64,000 bases of DNA. It comes from Agrypnia vestita. Taxonomy: Eukaryota > Arthropoda > Insecta > Trichoptera > Phryganeidae. Location: assembly GCA_016648135.1 (NCBI GenBank), contig JADDOH010004017.1:186001-250000 (forward strand), read 5' to 3'. Position numbers and translations under genes: made by a program. The stretch's first letter is position 1; each line of letters starts with the position of its first letter. Shown here piece by piece: positions 5,434 to 46,283 of the stretch. Under the pieces are notes generated by a model. The model was not told the DNA's origin, searched no databases, and worked only from the letters and a program-made list of their open reading frames with translations.

Positions 5434-5559
5434 CTAGCTGATTAGTCCGGCTTCGCTCGGGACCATAATTTAGTAAGCGTAGAATTTGTTGACGTCTCTT
5501 TTTTGCTAGTTTCGGCATCTGTGATTGGGAACCATCTTCGCTTTACCAAAACATCAACA

Positions 5560-7575
5560 GATATTTTAGCACACAATCATAACACTCTAGAGAGAACCTT
5601 TCAAAACTTTCTAGAGCATTCCGAAATCTTATAGAACTTTCTGGAATCTTATAGAACTTTCCCTTTCCAGAACCTTCTAGAGCATGATAATTCTTTCTGG
5701 AACCTCTAGACCCACCGGCGCACTCCCCCACTCAGTTTGAAATCTTATAGATCTTTCTGATAGCCTGTAGAATTTTCTCCTTCCTTTTTAGAGAATTCTC
5801 GAACCCTCTAGAACTTTCTGGAACCTTTTAAACTCACCGTCACACTCACTTTCTCCATCCAGAACTTTCTAGAGCATTCTGGAACTTATTTTAATCTCTG
5901 GAACCTTCTAGACTCACCGACTCACTCCACCACTCAGTTTGGAATCTTTTAGAAAGTTTTTGAATTTTGTCTTTCCAGAACCTTCAAAAGCATTCGAGAA
6001 CCTTCATGAACGTTATGAAACCTTCTAGACCCCCAGACACACTCCACCTCACTGTTTGTAACGTTAGAGAAGTTTCTTTAGAAGAATAAAGAATCTTCTA
6101 GAACGTTCTCCTTCCAGAATTCTATAACTTTTTCAAACGTTCTGTAACTTTCTACAGTCACCGACACACTCCGCCACTTAGTTTGGAACCTTATAGAACA
6201 TTCTAAAATCTTCTAGAACATTCTCCTTTCAGAATTTTCGGGAGATTTATCTAACGTTCTGGAATCTTTTGATCTCACTAACATACTCCGTACTCAGTTT
6301 ACAACCTTATAGAACATTAGTGAATATTCTAGAACGTTGTCTTTCCAGAACTTTCTATAGCTTTCTGTTCCGAATGTTCTGGATCCTTCTAGACTCACCA
6401 ACACACTCCGCCACTCTTTGGAACCTTTTAAAACCTACTTGAACGTTTTCCTTTCAGAACCTTCTAAAGCATTCGAGAACCATCAGTAACATTCTGAACC
6501 TCTAGACTCACTGACACTCTCCGCCACTCAGTTTGTGTACTTATAGAACTTTCGGAAATCTTCTAGAACCTTTTCCTTCCAGAATTTTCTAAAGCTTTAT
6601 CGAACGTTCTAGCACCATCTAGATTCACCGGCACACTCCGCCACTCAGTTTGGAACCTTATAAAACCTTCTTGAACATTTTCCTTCCAGAATCTTCTAAA
6701 GTATTCGAAAACCATCATGAACCATCTAGACTCACTGACACACTCCGACACTCAGTTTGTGATCTTATAGAACTTTCGGAAATCTTCTAGGACCTTTTTC
6801 TTCCAGAATTTTGAACTTCCAGAGGCTTTATCGAACGTTCTAGAACCATCTAGACTCACCGGCATACTCCACCACTCACTTTGGAATCTTATAGAACTTT
6901 CTGTTTCCAGAAACATCTAAGGCATTCATTCTAAGGACTTCAACATTCTAAGGACTTCATGAACGTTCTGGAACCTTCTGGACACACCGACACACTCCGC
7001 TACTTAGTTTGGAACCTTATAGAACTTTCTGTTTCCAGAAACTTTTAAAGCATTCGAGAACCTTCATGAACGTTTTGGAACCTTCTGAACACATCGACAC
7101 ACTCCGCTGCTCAGTTTGGAACCATTTAGTACTTTCAGTAATCTTCTAGATTATTCTCTTTCCAGAACTTTCTAGAGCTTTACCGAACGTTCTGGAACCT
7201 TCTAAACTCACAGACACACTTCGCCATACTGTTTGGAATGTTAGAGCACTTTCAGGAAACTTTTAGAACGTTCTCCATCCAGAACATTCTTGAACTTTAT
7301 CGAACGGTCTGGAACCTTATAGTCACAGATACTTTCTAGACCTTTATTGAACGTTCTGGAACTTTTTAGCCCTACCTCGTAATTTGGAACCTTATAGAAC
7401 TTTCAGGAATCTTCTAGAACACTCCCCTTCCAGAACTTTCTAGAGCTTTACCAGACATTCTGAAACATTTTTGACTCACCGGTACACTCCGCCACTTAGT
7501 TTGGAAACTTATTGAACTTTTGGGAATATTTTACAACATTCTCCTTCCAGAACTTTCTAGAATGGATTTTTCCGG
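5560..7575. repeat. tandem array of ~118-bp units rich in TTCnnGAA motifs
   Basis: The landmark ACACTCCGCCACTCAGTTTGG recurs in diverged form near 5920, 6040, 6165, 6285, 6400, 6515, 6632, 6741, 6865, 6990, 7095, 7213 and 7485, giving a unit of roughly 110-125 bp and about 16 units. Each unit holds TTCTAGAA, TTCTGGAA and GAACGTTC. Longer runs such as GAA-CG-TTC-TG-GAA-CC-TTC (near 6968 and 7190) have four alternating nGAAn blocks at the 5-bp spacing that defines a heat shock element. The motif is seen directly; HSF binding is inferred. Confidence 0.8.
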
Positions 7576-7589
7576 AACCTTCTAGACTT

Positions 7590-8195
7590 ACCGTACCTAC
7601 CGACACAGTTGGCGGGCCCTTCTGGAACAATCTGAAGCATTTGCGCCCTTCGCAAAACAAAAAAACGTGCTAGAAAGCACATTTTCATCACCCGCTCCCA
7701 CCCACGCCTAGCCATCCCCACCAAACTGGGACATTTTCGATGTGACCCCAAGGGCTATCTGCCACCATAACCATCAGGGGGTGGTAGTGTAAGTGTAATT
7801 CGAAGGACGGTGTTCTAGAACACCCTCCTTCGAATTTATCGAATGTACAGGAACCTTCTAGACACACCGACATATTCCGCCACTCAGTTTAGAACCTTAT
7901 AGAACTTTCGGGAATTTTCTAGAACCTTCTCCTTCCAGAACTTTCTAGAGCAGGTTTTTTCGATACCTTCTAGACTTACCGACACAGTCGGCGCGCCTAT
8001 TTTGAAACAAATCTGATGCATTTGCGGCCTTCCCATTACAAAACAATGTGCTAGAAAGCACATTTTCGTCAACGCACAGCCACCCGCACCAAACTCGCAT
8101 ATTTTCGATGTGACACCAAGGGCTATCCACCACCATAACCACCAGTGGATGGTTGTAGCTGGTTGTGGAGAAAACTTGGCGGATAGGGAAACACG
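7590..8195. repeat. two-copy ~370-bp segment inside the Helitron-like element
   Basis: About 7590-7790 and 7975-8160 are diverged direct copies. Both hold GTGCTAGAAAGCACATTTTC (a hairpin), TTTTCGATGTGAC and AAGGGCTATC. The second copy is the part preserved at 45880-46080 in opposite orientation. The apparent ORF here (7884-8240, minus) is W/V-rich and is preserved only because the DNA element is repeated. Confidence 0.7.
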
Positions 8196-8211
8196 GGTTT
8201 CTTTATATATA

Positions 8212-8264
8212 TATTGATGTGACACGTATTCCGTGTTCACATCTCTATTTAAAAAAAAAAAAAG
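8212..8264 (+). repeat. SINE 3' tail fragment with poly(A)
   Basis: The sequence TGACACGTATTCCGTGTTC followed by A13 matches the 3' end of the tRNA-derived SINE seen at 14331-14511, 55873-56060 and 62134-62313. It abuts the end of the Helitron-like element at 8217; the SINE head is missing. Confidence 0.75.
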
Positions 8265-16151: not shown

Positions 16152-17460
16152 TTAGGTCCTTACATATGAAATTGGCGTTTTGCCGTACTGGCAAATTTGA
16201 TCTCAAATATCTTCTCTTTGGTTAGGAATTCCAAATCTAAATTTATACAGCTATTTACTCATGTATTTGTGTTTTGAAAATTATGATTCATTTGTTTTTT
16301 CCTCAATTGTTTTTTCTTTGCGTCACTCAGTTTACAAAATGAAAAACTTGAAATATCGCGTTATTTACGAGTACGAGTTCCACCGTGGCACCAGTGCTGC
16401 AGAAACGGCTCGAAGGATTAATGATGTGTATGGCGACGGTGCCGCAAAAGAAAACACAGTGCGTTTTTGGTTCCAACGTTTTCGTTCTGGAAATTTCGAC
16501 CTGCAGAACAAGCCCCGTGGACGGCCGGAGACCAAAGTTGATAATGAAGAATTGAAGGCTATTGTGGAAGCGGATCCATCGCAAACCACATCCGAGTTAG
16601 CTGCAGGCTGCGGTGTTAGTGATAAAACTGTTTTAATCCACAAATTGTTAAGGTGAAAAAGCTTGAAAGGTGGGTACCTCACGAATTGAGTGAAGCAAAT
16701 CAACAAACGCGCGTTGACTGCTGCGTTGCATTACTCAACCGGCACAATAATGAAGGGATTTTAAATCGAATCATTACCTGTGAATGAAAAGTGGAGTCCT
16801 GTACGATTGAATCGGAAGCGCTCTCAACGCATGGCAGACCCGCCGACAACAAGGCCAAAACATTGACCCCAAGAGCAAATGACTCCAAAAAAGTTACTTG
16901 TGAGGCGTTTGGTGGACTAGTGCTGGTGTCGTTCACTACAGCTTTCTTAAATATGGCCAGTGACACGATTACGGCAGAAGTCTTGTGGTCAGCAACTTGC
17001 ACAACCATGATGGAAAAAGCTAGATGCTAAACAAAGCCGAGGGCTGGTTTAATGCTGCTAGGCCACTGCGTGCTTCATGTAACGGCAGACAAACACCACT
17101 GCACAACAGGACGCGCTAACCAAGATTAGGGGAGCTTCACATTGGATGTCTAAGATCATCCACCCAACCGTACTCTCCGGACCTTGCCCCAACAGATTAC
17201 CATTTTTTTCGAAATTTGGATAACACCTTGCAAAGGAAAAAATTCAACTCCGATGGGGCAGTCCAAACCGCCTTCAAAGTTTTTATTGATTCCCGTCCGA
17301 ATGGTTTTTTTAGTAAAGGGATCGATGAACTACCTATGAGATGGCAAAAGTGCATAGATAGCAATGGTACATACTTTGATTAAATAAATATATTATAATT
17401 AAAAAAAATCGGCTTTATGTTCCTCCCTACTAAACGCCAATTTCATATGTAAGGACCTAA
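16152..17460 (+). mobile_element. complete mariner element (mori/DD37D-like)
   Basis: The inverted ends TTAGGTCCTTACATATGAAA (16152) and the mirror ending at 17460 are flanked by TA (16150-16151 and 17461-17462). This is the Tc1/mariner target duplication. The length, 1309 bp, is normal for mariner. A second copy of the same family begins at 63646. The transposase inside is frameshifted (next entry), so this copy is immobile unless helped in trans. Confidence 0.95.
16339..17383 (+). pseudogene. mariner transposase, frameshifted
   Basis: The ATG at 16339 opens MKNLKYRVIYEYEFHRGTSA, then ENTVRFWFQRFRSGNFDL and KPRGRPETKVDNEELKAIVE: the two N-terminal helix-turn-helix domains and the GRP linker of mariner. 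The frame shifts near 16650 and continues as KKLERWVPHELSEANQQTRV. It shifts again near 16783, exactly at the first catalytic Asp (the CDEKW box), so that codon is lost. The second Asp (LLHDNARPH box) is lost to a deletion near 17078. The third Asp survives in SPDLAPTDYHFFRNLD at 17195-17197. The remaining distance between the second and third sites fits a DD37D enzyme. The end is IDSNGTYFD at about 17383. Full length would be about 345 residues, normal for the family. Confidence 0.93.
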
Positions 17461-22619: not shown

Positions 22620-23118
22620 AGCTTAAGCTGATAGGCCCATATCACTGTCTCTTATTTGAATATCCAGCCTATTCTTAAATTGGTTGACACTGGCTGCAGA
22701 CACAACATCCTCGGGCAAACTGTTCCACATATTGACCACTCTATTGCTTAATGCATGCTTTCTTGGGTTACACGAGAACCGAGACTTGTTCAACTTCAGG
22801 TGATGTCCTCGAAGGCCCACATTAGTGTTAAATGCAAACATATCTGTCATATTAGGAATATTGTAGTAGCCCGATAGAATCTTGAATGTCTCGATGAGGT
22901 CACCTCTTGCTCGTCGCTCCTGAAGAGTGGGCAGTTTCAATACTCTCAGCCTTTCCGCATATTCCAGGTGTTTAAGACCCAAGGGCAATTTTGTGGCTCG
23001 TCTCTGAACATTTTCCAGTAAAACTATATCTTTAACAAAATATGGATTCCAGATCTGAGAGGCATATTCGATGAAATCGCCGTCCCAGACACGATATTTA
23101 AGAAAAATGTCTTATGAA
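22620..23118 (-). pseudogene. CR1-like LINE ORF2 C-terminal fragment
   Basis: The minus frame reads VWDGDFIEYASQIWNPYFVK, DIVLLENVQRRATK, then RLRVLKLPTLQERRARGDLI and ETFKILSGYYNIP, and ends NRVVNMWNSLPEDVVSAASV, NQFKNRLDIQIRD. This is the conserved region after the reverse transcriptase palm of CR1/L2-group LINEs (EYA--IW-P, LE-VQRRATK, L-LE-RR-RGDLI, F--RV---WN-LP--VV-A-SVN-FK--LD). It is open for about 160 codons and 5'-truncated, as expected of a dead-on-arrival LINE copy. The stop lies at about 22620 and the simple-repeat tail follows. Confidence 0.9.
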
Positions 23119-25071: not shown

Positions 25072-26732
25072 CTAGCTGTTCTTACCCGGCGTTGTACGGG
25101 TTAAGGATTAAGTTTAAAATAAATTTGTGAGGGTAAACAAAGGCATCGAAAATATATAAGCGGAGGGGAAGGGTTAAAAGAATAGGGGGGAAATGTCACA
25201 TATGTTACCCGCCGAGTTCTAACGAATAAGTATCCAAATTTTGAGGTCCGATCGGCCGAAAGGTACAGATTTACCTAGAAAATAATCAGGGGAGGGGAAG
25301 GGTTAAAAGGATAGGGGGAAATGTCGCATATATTACCCGCCGAGTCCTTAAGAATAAGTTTTCAATTTTTGAGTCCGATCGGTGAAACGGTACAGATTTG
25401 CATCGAAAATGTTAGGGGGAGGGGAAGGGGTATGAAAATAGGGAGGAAATGTTGCCTATGTTACCCTCCGAGTCCTAAAGAATAAGTTTACAAATTTTGA
25501 ATCCGATTGGTCAAACAGTACAAATTTGCATCGAAAATATGTTAGGGGAAGGAAGGGTATGAGAACGGGGAGGAAATTTTGCCTATGTTACCCGTCGAGT
25601 CCTAAAGAATAAGTTTCCAAATTTTGAGTCCGATCGGTCAAACTGTACAGATTTGCATCGAAAATATGTCAGGGGAAGGGGTATGATAGATAATAGGGAG
25701 GAAATGTTGCCTATGTTACCCGCTGAGTCCTAAAGAATAAGTTGTCAAATTTTGAGTCCGATCAGTCAAACGGTACAGATTTGCATCCATAATATGTCAG
25801 GGGGAGGAGAAGGGGTATGAGAATAGGGAGGAAATGTTGTCTATGTTACCCGCCGAGTCCTAAAGAATAAGTTTCCAAATTTTGAGTCCGATCGGTCAAA
25901 CGGTACAAATTTGCATCGAAAATATGTCAGAGGGAGTAGAAGGGGTATGAGAATAGGGGGCAATTATCGCCTATGTTACTCCCTGAGTCCTAAAGAGTAA
26001 ATTTCCAAATTTTGAGTTTTATCGGTCAAACGGTAAAAATTTGCATCGAAAATATTTCAGAGGGAGTAAAAGGCGTATGAGAATAGGGAGGAAATATCGC
26101 CTATGTTACTCGCCGAGTCCTAAAGAAAAAGTTTCCAAATTTTGAGTCCGATCGGTCAAACGGTACAGATTTGCATCGAAATATGTCAGGGGAGGGGAAG
26201 GGGTATGAAATAGGGGGGAAATGTTGCCTATGTTACCCGCCGAGTCCTAAAGAATAAGTTTCCAAATTTTGAGTCCGATCGGTCAAACGGTACAGATTTG
26301 CATCGAAAATATGTCAGGGGAGGGGAAGGGGTATGAAAATAGGGGGGAATATCACTTATGTTACTCGCCGAGTCCTAAAGAATAAGTTTCCAAATTTTGA
26401 GTCCGGTCGGTCAAACGGTACAGATTTTCATGGAAAATATGTCAGGGGAGGGGAAGGGGTATGAAAATAGGGGGGAATATCACTTATGTTACTCGCCGAG
26501 TCCTAAAGAATAAGTTTCCAAATTTTGAGTCCGATCGGTCAAACTGTACAGATTTGCATCGAAAATATGTCAGGGGGAGGGGAAGGGGTATGAGAATAGG
26601 GAGGAATTGTCACCTATGCTACCTGCCGGGTCCCAAAGCATAAGTATGCAAAATTTGAATCGATCGGACAAACGGTGTGGATTTGTATAGAGAACAGACA
26701 GACAGACAGACATTGAGTTTTATAGGTATAGA
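25072..26732 (-). mobile_element. Helitron-like element with internal ~128-bp tandem array
   Basis: On the minus strand it begins TCTATACCTATAAAACTC (26732 inward, host A before it). It then has a GTCTGTCTGTCTG tract, and ends with a hairpin (CCCGTACAACGCCGGG) and CTAG at 25072-25075, followed by host T. The interior is about 12 tandem units of 127-130 bp, marked by AAGTTTCCAAATTTTGAGTC near 25231, 25359, 25488, 25614, 25742, 25872, 26002, 26132, 26260, 26387, 26515 and 26643. Units share GATCGGTCAAACGGTACAGA, GGGGAGGGGAAGGGGTATGA and TTACCCGCCGAGTCC. It has no Rep/helicase gene. The three conserved words per unit vary much less than the G-rich linker. Confidence 0.85.
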
Positions 26733-26973
26733 TATTGAGCATTTAAAGAAAAGAAAAAGATAAATATAATGATATGTTTCGGACCATTCCTTCATTTAAT
26801 TAGTGAGAAGGAGATTTATTTTTTACAGTTCATATAAAATGAATGTGAAATTTCTTTGTCTTGCTACAAATGGTGGTGTTGTGTCGCCACAGCTATCTGA
26901 CATCAAATGTATCAATTTTACATCGGATTGAACTCAAAAATAATTAATATTAAAGGAAACACATAATTTTTGT

Positions 26974-34239: not shown

Positions 34240-34744
34240 GTTTTTATTTAAGTTGAAAATAAATTTGTGGGGGGAAACAAAGGTTTCAATTTTTTGCAAA
34301 ACCTCTGATTAAAACAATGTTTCCATTTAATAAAGGCTGGGATGGATAGGATGTCCAGGGAAGAAATATGGCCTATTTTTTCCGTCGGGAATATGTATGC
34401 AAAATTTGGGTCCAATTGGTGAAGCGGTGTAGATTTGTACAGAAAATATATCTGGGGGAGGGGATGGGTTAGAAAAGGGAGAGGACATATCGCCTATGTT
34501 ATCCGCCGGGTTCTAAAGAATATGTTTGCAAATTTTGAGTTCGATCAGTCGAACGGTACAGATTTACATTGAGAATATATCAGGGGGAGGGGAAGGGGTA
34601 AAAGGAAGGTGGAAATGTCGCCGTTGTTACCCGCCGGGTCCTAAAGCATAAGTATGCAAAATTTGAATCGAATCGGACAAACCGTGTAGATTTGTATAGA
34701 GAACAGACAGACAGACATGGCAGGCAGAGTTTTATAAGTATAGA
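34240..34744 (-). mobile_element. truncated Helitron-like array, third site
   Basis: On the minus strand it begins TCTATACTTATAAAACTC with host A before it (34744 inward), then has the GTCTGTCTGTC tract. About three units of the 128-bp family follow (GATTTGTACAGAAAATATATC, TTACCCGCCGGGTCCTAAAG). The left side begins in GAAAATAAATTTGTGGGGGG, matching 25100 onward in the first element. The hairpin and CTAG end is missing, so the copy is truncated. Confidence 0.75.
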
Positions 34745-45832: not shown

Positions 45833-46283
45833 TCAATATATATATATATAAAAAAAACCTGTGTTTCCCTATCCGCCAAGTTTTCTCTACAACCAGCTAC
45901 AACCATCCACTGGCGGTTATGGCGGTGGATAGCCCTTGGTGTCACATCGAAAATATGCGAGTTTGGTGGGGGTGGCTGTGCGTTTGACGAAAATGTGCTT
46001 TCTAGCACATTGTTTTGTAATGGGAAGGCCGCAAATGCTTCAGATTTGTTTCAAAATAGGCGCGCCGACTGTGTCGGTAAGTCTAGAAGGTATCGAAAAA
46101 ACCCGCTCTAGAAAGTTCTGGAAGGAGAAGGTTCTAGAAAATTCCCGAAAGTTCTATAAGGTTCTAAACTGAGTGGCGGAATGTGTCGGTGTGTCTAGAA
46201 GGTTCCCGTACATTCGATAAATTCGAAGGAGGATGTTCTAGAAGGTTCGCGAAAGTGCTATGACGATCCAAACAGTGTACTAG
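45833..46283 (+). mobile_element. heat-shock-motif Helitron-like element, short copy
   Basis: It begins TCAATATATATATATATAAA at 45833 after host A and shares about 370 bp with the complement of 7860-8217 (AGTTTTCTCTACAACCAGCT, GTGCTTTCTAGCACATTGTT, GTTCTGGAAGGAGAAGGTTC). Only one to two array units remain, with TTCTAGAA-type motifs. It closes at a CTAG (46280-46283) followed by T, but without a clear 3' hairpin. It shows that the element family moves independently of the long array. Confidence 0.6.

What the first reader, a model, noticed from the sequence alone, without database searches (positions are those of the whole stretch)
5434..8217. Helitron-like element carrying a 2-kb tandem array of heat-shock-element motifs
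Seen: about 16 units of ~118 bp, nearly all containing TTCTAGAA, TTCTGGAA or GAACGTTC, some with four alternating GAA/TTC blocks at exact 5-bp phase. Known: HSF trimers bind three or more nGAAn blocks in this arrangement, and Helitron-borne heat shock elements rewire stress responses in Caenorhabditis. Inference: the array could be an HSF sink, stress-inducible enhancer or source of stress-induced noncoding RNA, loosely like HSF-bound satellite III in humans. The density exceeds what a promoter needs.
Basis: partly seen in the sequence, partly recalled or inferred. Interest (0 to 1): 0.78.

Follow-up and report, generated by a model that had tools for sequence, protein, structure and literature searches.

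The report
Heat-shock-site-packed Helitron transposon family
An abundant jumping element in this animal genome carries dense, precisely spaced copies of the DNA site that the heat-shock master regulator normally recognises, so it may have spread thousands of heat-responsive switches; whether they work has not been tested.

Summary
Window 5434-8217 is a complete canonical Helitron on the minus strand (5' TC, 3' CTAG, A and T beyond the ends). Its interior gives 20 matches to a ~117-bp unit, most of which is GAA/TTC alternating at 5-bp phase: 55 chains of two or more blocks against a mean of 3.6 in dinucleotide shuffles, 24 of three or more against 0.1. It belongs to an abundant non-autonomous family: many ~480-bp copies and rarer long copies with arrays. 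The 1.32-Gb genome holds 21,260 perfect four-block sites (TTCnnGAAnnTTCnnGAA) against 68 for the reversed pattern; 20 of 20 sampled clusters lie in this family. Phased blocks outlast matched triplets between diverged copies, a modest and mixed sign of past selection. The genome encodes an HSF with a canonical recognition helix. Around 12 of 102 Rep/helicase matches no HSE was found. Closest precedent: Caenorhabditis HSE-Helitrons, which their discoverers said may be restricted to that genus; this looks like an independent case. HSF binding, heat induction and effects on genes are inferred, not shown. The host species was not identified.

The parts
5434..8217 (-). Complete non-autonomous Helitron, long (array-bearing) form; Helitron 5' end at 8217, 3' end at 5434
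   Evidence: Termini A|CTAG...TTGA|T on the + strand; same ends in relatives L001, L002, L049 and in short copies
8188..8217 (-). Helitron 5' end: TC + A/T run + subterminal stem GAAAC/GTTTC (8188-8201)
   Evidence: DNA fold -2.8 kcal/mol, z -3.2; 28 tail matches in 32 sequences, base after ...GA is T in 22 of 28
5434..5464 (-). Helitron 3' end: GC-rich hairpin (decayed here) followed after about 10 nt by CTAG
   Evidence: Hairpin in L001 and L002 (-6.7 and -6.8 kcal/mol; 8 and 11 of 200 shuffles fold as well), not above shuffles in the window copy (z +0.2); base before CTAG is A in 20 of 21 copies where that end was located
5621..7586 (.). Main array: 18 matches to the ~117-bp HSE unit
   Evidence: Unit HMM; phased-block statistics
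7590..7796 (.). First copy of the non-HSE tail (Helitron 5' region) inside the element
   Evidence: Resembles 7975-8217; L001 and L002 have a single tail
7811..7974 (.). Two further unit matches (one partial), incl. the longest chain (six blocks from 7902), short-form type
   Evidence: 7813-8217 is 97% identical to the short copy at 45840-46243
7975..8217 (.). Second tail; the form shared with the abundant ~480-bp copies
45833..46283 (+). Second family member in the window: short copy with 7 perfect three-block HSEs, apparently ending at an alternative CTAG (ends placed by eye)

Best explanation
The feature is one long copy of an abundant non-autonomous Helitron family whose interior is a heat-shock-factor (HSF) binding-site array. 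SHOWN: canonical Helitron ends; a ~117-bp unit made of about 29 bp of other sequence plus about 88 bp built on 5-bp-phased GAA/TTC; the same module in many dispersed copies; 20 of 20 sampled four-block clusters lie in this family. ESTIMATED: of the order of ten thousand copies. INFERRED: an ancestral Helitron had an HSE module about 250 bp inside its 5' end, the promoter position of an autonomous element. Non-autonomous derivatives kept it and, in the long lineage, amplified it. When HSF is activated, trimers bind these sites cooperatively, open chromatin and recruit RNA polymerase II at copies. That ties the element's transcription and accessibility to stress, and incidentally makes each insertion a candidate heat-inducible enhancer. 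Most copies decay neutrally after insertion.
For: Motif statistics. Genome-wide 21,260 four-block sites vs 68 reversed-pattern control; 20 of 20 sampled clusters are family members, 20 of the 23 clusters visible in the capped listing. 9 of 12 TTCTAGAAnnTTCTAGAA loci read (of 93 hits, control 0) are family members. Helitron ends. Unit consensus with 13 intact in-phase blocks. In-phase GAA/TTC retained 64/80, 50/61, 44/52, 42/47 against off-phase GAA/TTC 24/44, 24/37, 20/29, 18/27 in four overlapping comparisons. Core columns more conserved than interblock spacers among 81 of 95 units (A/T 0.939 vs 0.797), a contrast absent at A/T sites of young short copies. An HSF DNA-binding domain with SFIRQLNMYGFHKV is encoded. 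In C. [quoted passage not shown] PMC6765114, passages).
Against: No binding, expression or chromatin data. The 29-bp non-HSE part of the unit is about as conserved as the HSE core (A/T 0.900, G/C 0.857 vs core 0.939, 0.825). With two copies agreeing and a third tested, core A/T beat control A/T in 4 of 4 tests but beat the interblock spacers in only 2 of 4 (in the other two, spacer A/T was 21/21 and 14/15). The G/C position of each block, which matters most for HSF (recalled), is not significantly better conserved on its own in any test. Pieces around 12 of 102 Rep/helicase matches hold no three-block HSE and no similarity to the family, so the promoter-origin step lacks its key witness.
Confidence: 0.62

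Rival explanations
1. Neutral passenger: the HSE-like array is a satellite-type internal repeat that grew by slippage from a ~10-bp GAAnnTTCnn seed and was multiplied by Helitron transposition; HSF may or may not bind it, but its match to HSF specificity has no role in the element's success.
For: GAA/TTC recur at 5, 10 and 15 bp (91 alternating, 69 same, 62 alternating), as a short-unit origin predicts; the non-HSE part of the unit is similarly conserved; spacers are as conserved as cores in 2 of 4 tests; G/C positions are not significantly protected; another CTAG-type element in the window (about 25072-26733) has a 128-bp array with no three-block HSE, so arrays arise in such elements anyway.
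Against: In-phase blocks outlast off-phase GAA/TTC in 4 of 4 overlapping comparisons; short and long forms share the phased design; 17 block positions in 88 bp (13 intact and in phase in the consensus; the rest read by eye) is a striking coincidence.
Confidence: 0.4
2. HSF sink: the sites are so many that they titrate HSF and dampen or reshape the heat-shock response (compatible with the first two).
For: 21,260 four-block sites in the assembly; 12-50 three-block sites in each long copy or its ~3-kb locus.
Against: Copies are dispersed and may be silenced; no occupancy data; bound sites would also act as enhancers.
Confidence: 0.15
3. The 5-bp-phased palindromic array serves DNA structure or Rep/helicase recognition during rolling-circle transposition, not HSF.
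For: Palindromic blocks could form cruciforms; all 20 short copies read hold at least one three-block HSE.
Against: Insertions exist with few and with about twenty units; Helitron ends are recognised at TC and hairpin-CTAG (recalled; features as in PMC6544945, passages); no other triplet pair shows the phase.
Confidence: 0.1

Closest known systems
Caenorhabditis HSE-bearing Helitrons (Helitron1_CE, Helitron2_CE, HelitronY types; Garrigues et al. 2019, PMC6927752)
   Same: Helitrons carrying dense clusters of HSEs (windows with more than 10 per kb in some species), mostly non-autonomous copies, in C. elegans supplying a large share of the genome's HSEs
   Different: Apparently a different animal lineage; HSEs organised here as a ~117-bp tandem unit; 21,260 four-block sites; an HSE-bearing Rep-helicase copy, known in C. 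elegans, was not found here; binding and induction are shown there, not here
Helentron non-autonomous elements with satellite-like arrays (oyster, PMC7492417; abstract start in search listing only)
   Same: Rolling-circle non-autonomous element carrying a tandem array
   Different: Those are Helentrons, and no HSE content was mentioned in what I saw; here the ends are TC...CTAG
ONSEN/COPIA78 and other heat-responsive COPIA elements of Brassicaceae (PMC5059998; abstract start in search listing only)
   Same: Transposon with heat-responsive elements in its regulatory region
   Different: Retrotransposons in plants; no tandem array of this kind mentioned in what I saw
Human satellite III bound by HSF1 (PMC9032817; abstract start in search listing only; details recalled)
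   Same: Repetitive DNA as an HSF target
   Different: Satellite arrays, not a dispersed transposon

Membership tests
Canonical Helitron | 5' terminus TC and 3' terminus CTRR (here CTAG) | tested here: met
   ends shared by copies at different places. Features as stated in PMC6544945 (passages)
Canonical Helitron | Insertion between A and T without target-site duplication | tested here: met
   A before CTAG in 20 of 21, T after GA in 22 of 28 tail matches (the first-GA rule misplaces some); 32 sequences examined. Not confirmed by an empty site: that search did not complete
Canonical Helitron | Hairpin upstream of the 3' end | tested here: met
   L001 z -2.1, L002 z -1.9; not in the window copy, z +0.2. 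Only these three ends were folded
Canonical Helitron | Rep/helicase encoded (autonomous members) | tested here: not met
   No stop-to-stop frame of 150 aa or more lies in the window element, so it is filed only as non-autonomous. The genome has 102 PF14214 matches; none of 12 examined shares sequence with the family
Heat shock element array | Three or more nGAAn blocks, alternating, 5-bp phase, beyond chance | tested here: met
Heat shock element array | HSF binding and heat-inducible activity | not testable with these tools
   Needs ChIP, RNA-seq or a reporter assay
Caenorhabditis-type HSE Helitron | HSEs concentrated in Helitrons genome-wide | tested here: met
   20 of 20 sampled four-block clusters in the family; sample from the first eight contigs only
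Caenorhabditis-type HSE Helitron | HSEs in the promoter of an autonomous Rep/helicase element | tested here: inconclusive
   0 three-block HSEs in 14 pieces around 12 of 102 matches; the right partner may not have been sampled, and some pieces may lie outside their element
Helentron/HINE | Helentron-type ends instead of TC...CTRR | tested here: not met
   Ends are TC...CTAG

The most novel reading that the evidence does not exclude
Outside nematodes, a Helitron family independently turned the HSF site into its own cis-acting asset: it amplified HSF-binding units, uses HSF-opened chromatin at stress to be transcribed and copied even as a non-autonomous element, and by flooding the genome with tens of thousands of strong HSEs made the host's heat-shock network and the transposon inseparable.
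Probability: 0.3. Interest if true: 0.87.

Novelty: new variant of a known kind. Interest (0 to 1): 0.7.

Why it matters
The Caenorhabditis study found HSE enrichment in Helitrons in all 27 Caenorhabditis genomes examined and not in the other UCSC animal genomes with annotated Helitrons (PMC6927752, section 9). An independent and large case would show that capture of heat-shock sites by rolling-circle transposons recurs. It makes testable whether transposons gain by exploiting HSF, and how an animal runs a heat-shock response with more than 20,000 dispersed strong sites.

Tried and rejected
Ordinary satellite or chance motif: rejected (shuffles; reversed-pattern control). Helentron/HINE: rejected by the ends. 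HSEs in the autonomous Helitrons of this genome: looked for around 12 of 102 Rep/helicase matches (upstream of all 12, also downstream of two), none found. The partner may be lost, unassembled or unsampled; L080, L081, L083 and L085 match neither L053 nor L054 and may lie outside their element. A first conservation test showed high core identity but was biased: choosing blocks intact in the reference lowers expected divergence. I replaced it with tests conditioned on two agreeing copies; only one search has context-matched triplets. A first attempt to split units by a fixed anchor found only 7 of them and was replaced by the HMM. The third sequence folded was not an element end and is not used. 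Viral contigs: no exact match to two family patterns. Host identity: not determined; insect-like by recalled features only. Print: full-text searches joining Helitron with heat shock element, HSF-1, Lepidoptera, insects or heat shock factor and two broader ones listed no insect HSE-Helitron, judged from titles and abstract starts; the library lacks most subscription journals. PMC13104882 (passages) only cites the Caenorhabditis work; PMC6544945 (passages), an insect Helitron family, has no 'heat shock' in its main text as held.

Full report
OBSERVATION. The region 5434-8217 begins with CTAG and ends with TTGA on the + strand, with A before and T after. Between them lie 20 matches to a ~117-bp unit. 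In 5580-8000, alternating GAA/TTC blocks at 5 bp form 55 chains of two or more, 24 of three or more, 8 of four or more and 3 of five or more, the longest six. 1000 dinucleotide shuffles give means of 3.6, 0.10, 0 and 0. At 5 bp, 91 alternating pairs occur; the next best of all triplets with their reverse complements has 12. 43 of 47 three-block HSEs in the window are in this element or its short relative.

ANATOMY. Read on the minus strand the element is a canonical Helitron: TC + A/T run + a small stem at the 5' end, and a GC-rich hairpin followed by CTAG at the 3' end. Of 32 sequences inspected, 28 tail matches were found. The base beyond ...GA is T in 22 of 28, and the base before CTAG is A in 20 of the 21 where that end was located. 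The 3' hairpin folds moderately better than shuffles in L001 and L002 (8 and 11 of 200 shuffles as good) but not in the window copy. The consensus unit is 29 bp of unrelated sequence followed by 88 bp with 17 block positions at 5-bp steps and one phase slip; 13 are intact and in phase, the others read by eye. In Helitron orientation the array starts about 245 bp inside the 5' end. The window copy looks like a chimera: it has two tails (from 7590 and from 7975) where L001 and L002 have one. Its last 405 bp are 97% identical to the short copy at 45840-46243, the best-scoring match in the genome after itself.

FAMILY. A search with the last 441 bp gave 3069 first-look candidates, 40 of them scored; the 39 other than the query are 91-97% identical. 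I read 20 of these with flanks (L025-L044): ~480-bp elements, the tail found in 20 of 20 and the CTAG end located in 15 of 20, with a mean of 5.7 three-block HSEs (range 1-8). Long, array-bearing copies read: the window copy, L001, L002, L049 (both ends seen), and L047, L050, L052 (not both ends). These loci hold 12-50 three-block HSEs each, at most 12-32 per kb. The 20 short-copy loci have 3 such sites in 110 kb of flanks.

GENOME SCALE. TTCnnGAAnnTTCnnGAA occurs 21,260 times in the 1.32-Gb assembly; read backwards, 68 times. The listing shows only the first places; I fetched 20 of its 23 clusters (contigs 1-8; two on C7 and one on C8 left out). 20 of 20 match the family at 84-95% identity over 134-995 bp; the best match is a short-form reference in 18 and the window element in 2. 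The stricter TTCTAGAAnnTTCTAGAA occurs 93 times, control 0; of 12 such loci read (four cut out by the tool, eight chosen by me from the listing), 9 are in the family and 3 (L003, L004, L048) are not. At 1.45 four-block sites per short copy, 21,260 sites would mean roughly 15,000 copies; at the 2.1 seen per sampled cluster, about 10,000. Both are rough: the first sample is of the most similar copies, the second was chosen for having a site, and long copies carry 3-6.

SELECTION OR PASSENGER. Among 81 near-full units of 95 (14 short ones dropped, CpG columns left out), core columns are more conserved than interblock spacers (A/T 0.939 vs 0.797, G/C 0.825 vs 0.763; 0 of 10,000 label permutations reach this), but the 29-bp non-HSE part is similarly conserved (0.900, 0.857). 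Young short copies show no A/T contrast (core 0.979, spacer 1.000 from 9 sites) and a small G/C one (0.960 vs 0.928), about what neutral decay after insertion predicts. Conditioned on two agreeing copies and tested in a third, core A/T exceeds control A/T in 4 of 4 tests (p 1e-5 to 0.02) but exceeds spacers in only 2 of 4. With context-matched triplets, in-phase GAA/TTC is kept whole in 64/80, 50/61, 44/52 and 42/47 cases, off-phase GAA/TTC in 24/44, 24/37, 20/29 and 18/27. Against all matched triplets, p is 0.022, 0.079, 0.052 and 0.0045, and the four tests overlap. Gapped or poorly aligned stretches were dropped in both. The G/C position alone is never significant. Slippage in 10-bp register could also spare cores and mix spacers. 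I read this as modest evidence for constraint along source lineages, not proof.

PARTNERS. The genome holds 102 Helitron_like_N matches, a number of them in open frames of 685-1605 codons. Fourteen pieces around 12 of them contain no three-block HSE and no similarity to this family at E 1e-5; one recurrent group has, by eye, different Helitron ends. The machinery that moved this family is therefore unidentified. The genome encodes HSF: one exon translates to a domain with SFIRQLNMYGFHKV, and two further HSF-type matches with equal scores exist.

MECHANISM. Most likely the module descends from an HSF-responsive promoter of an ancestral Helitron, now carried and in one lineage amplified by non-autonomous copies; HSF would bind, open and transcribe copies at stress. 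Steps shown: ends, units, phase, abundance, family attribution. Steps inferred: binding, induction, benefit to the element, effects on host genes.

COMPARISON. Garrigues et al. 2019 (PMC6927752; abstract, sections 5, 9 and 12 and passages read) found HSE-enriched Helitrons in all 27 Caenorhabditis genomes examined, with HSF-1 and Pol II occupancy after heat shock in C. elegans, and no such enrichment in the other UCSC animal genomes with annotated Helitrons, concluding that it may be restricted to Caenorhabditis. Their genome-wide scan used its own motif, so counts are not directly comparable. PMC6765114 (passages) showed HSF-1-dependent induction of Helitron1_CE. My full-text searches listed no insect case (titles and abstract starts). 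A second CTAG-type element in the same window with an internal 128-bp array and no three-block HSE (ends by eye) shows that an array alone does not bring HSEs.

VERDICT. A real, strong and unusual feature: a new variant of the HSE-Helitron phenomenon, apparently independent of nematodes. Its function is plausible by precedent but untested.

Noticed in passing
window 25072-26733: Another CTAG-starting repeat element with an internal ~128-bp x 12 tandem array and no three-block HSE; probably a different Helitron-type family (ends read by eye only). A similar 128-bp array is at 34389-34703.
   Followed up: partly
window 46280-46283: The short copy at 45833-46283 departs from the family before the usual hairpin end and appears to end at a different CTAG followed by T, possibly a new 3' terminus.
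   Followed up: partly
window 16201-16656: Open frame resembling a mariner-type transposase (by eye); a longer relative lies in L030.
   Followed up: no
window 22623-23111: Open frame resembling the end of a non-LTR reverse transcriptase (by eye).
   Followed up: no
G000 contigs, e.g. C19569 (L053, L055): Many Rep/helicase matches with identical or nearly identical scores, a number of them in long open frames, suggesting recent activity of a different Helitron family.
   Followed up: partly
L088 (C9376:7050-7480): A second, divergent HSF-type DNA-binding domain, with an equal-scoring match on C18556.
   Followed up: no
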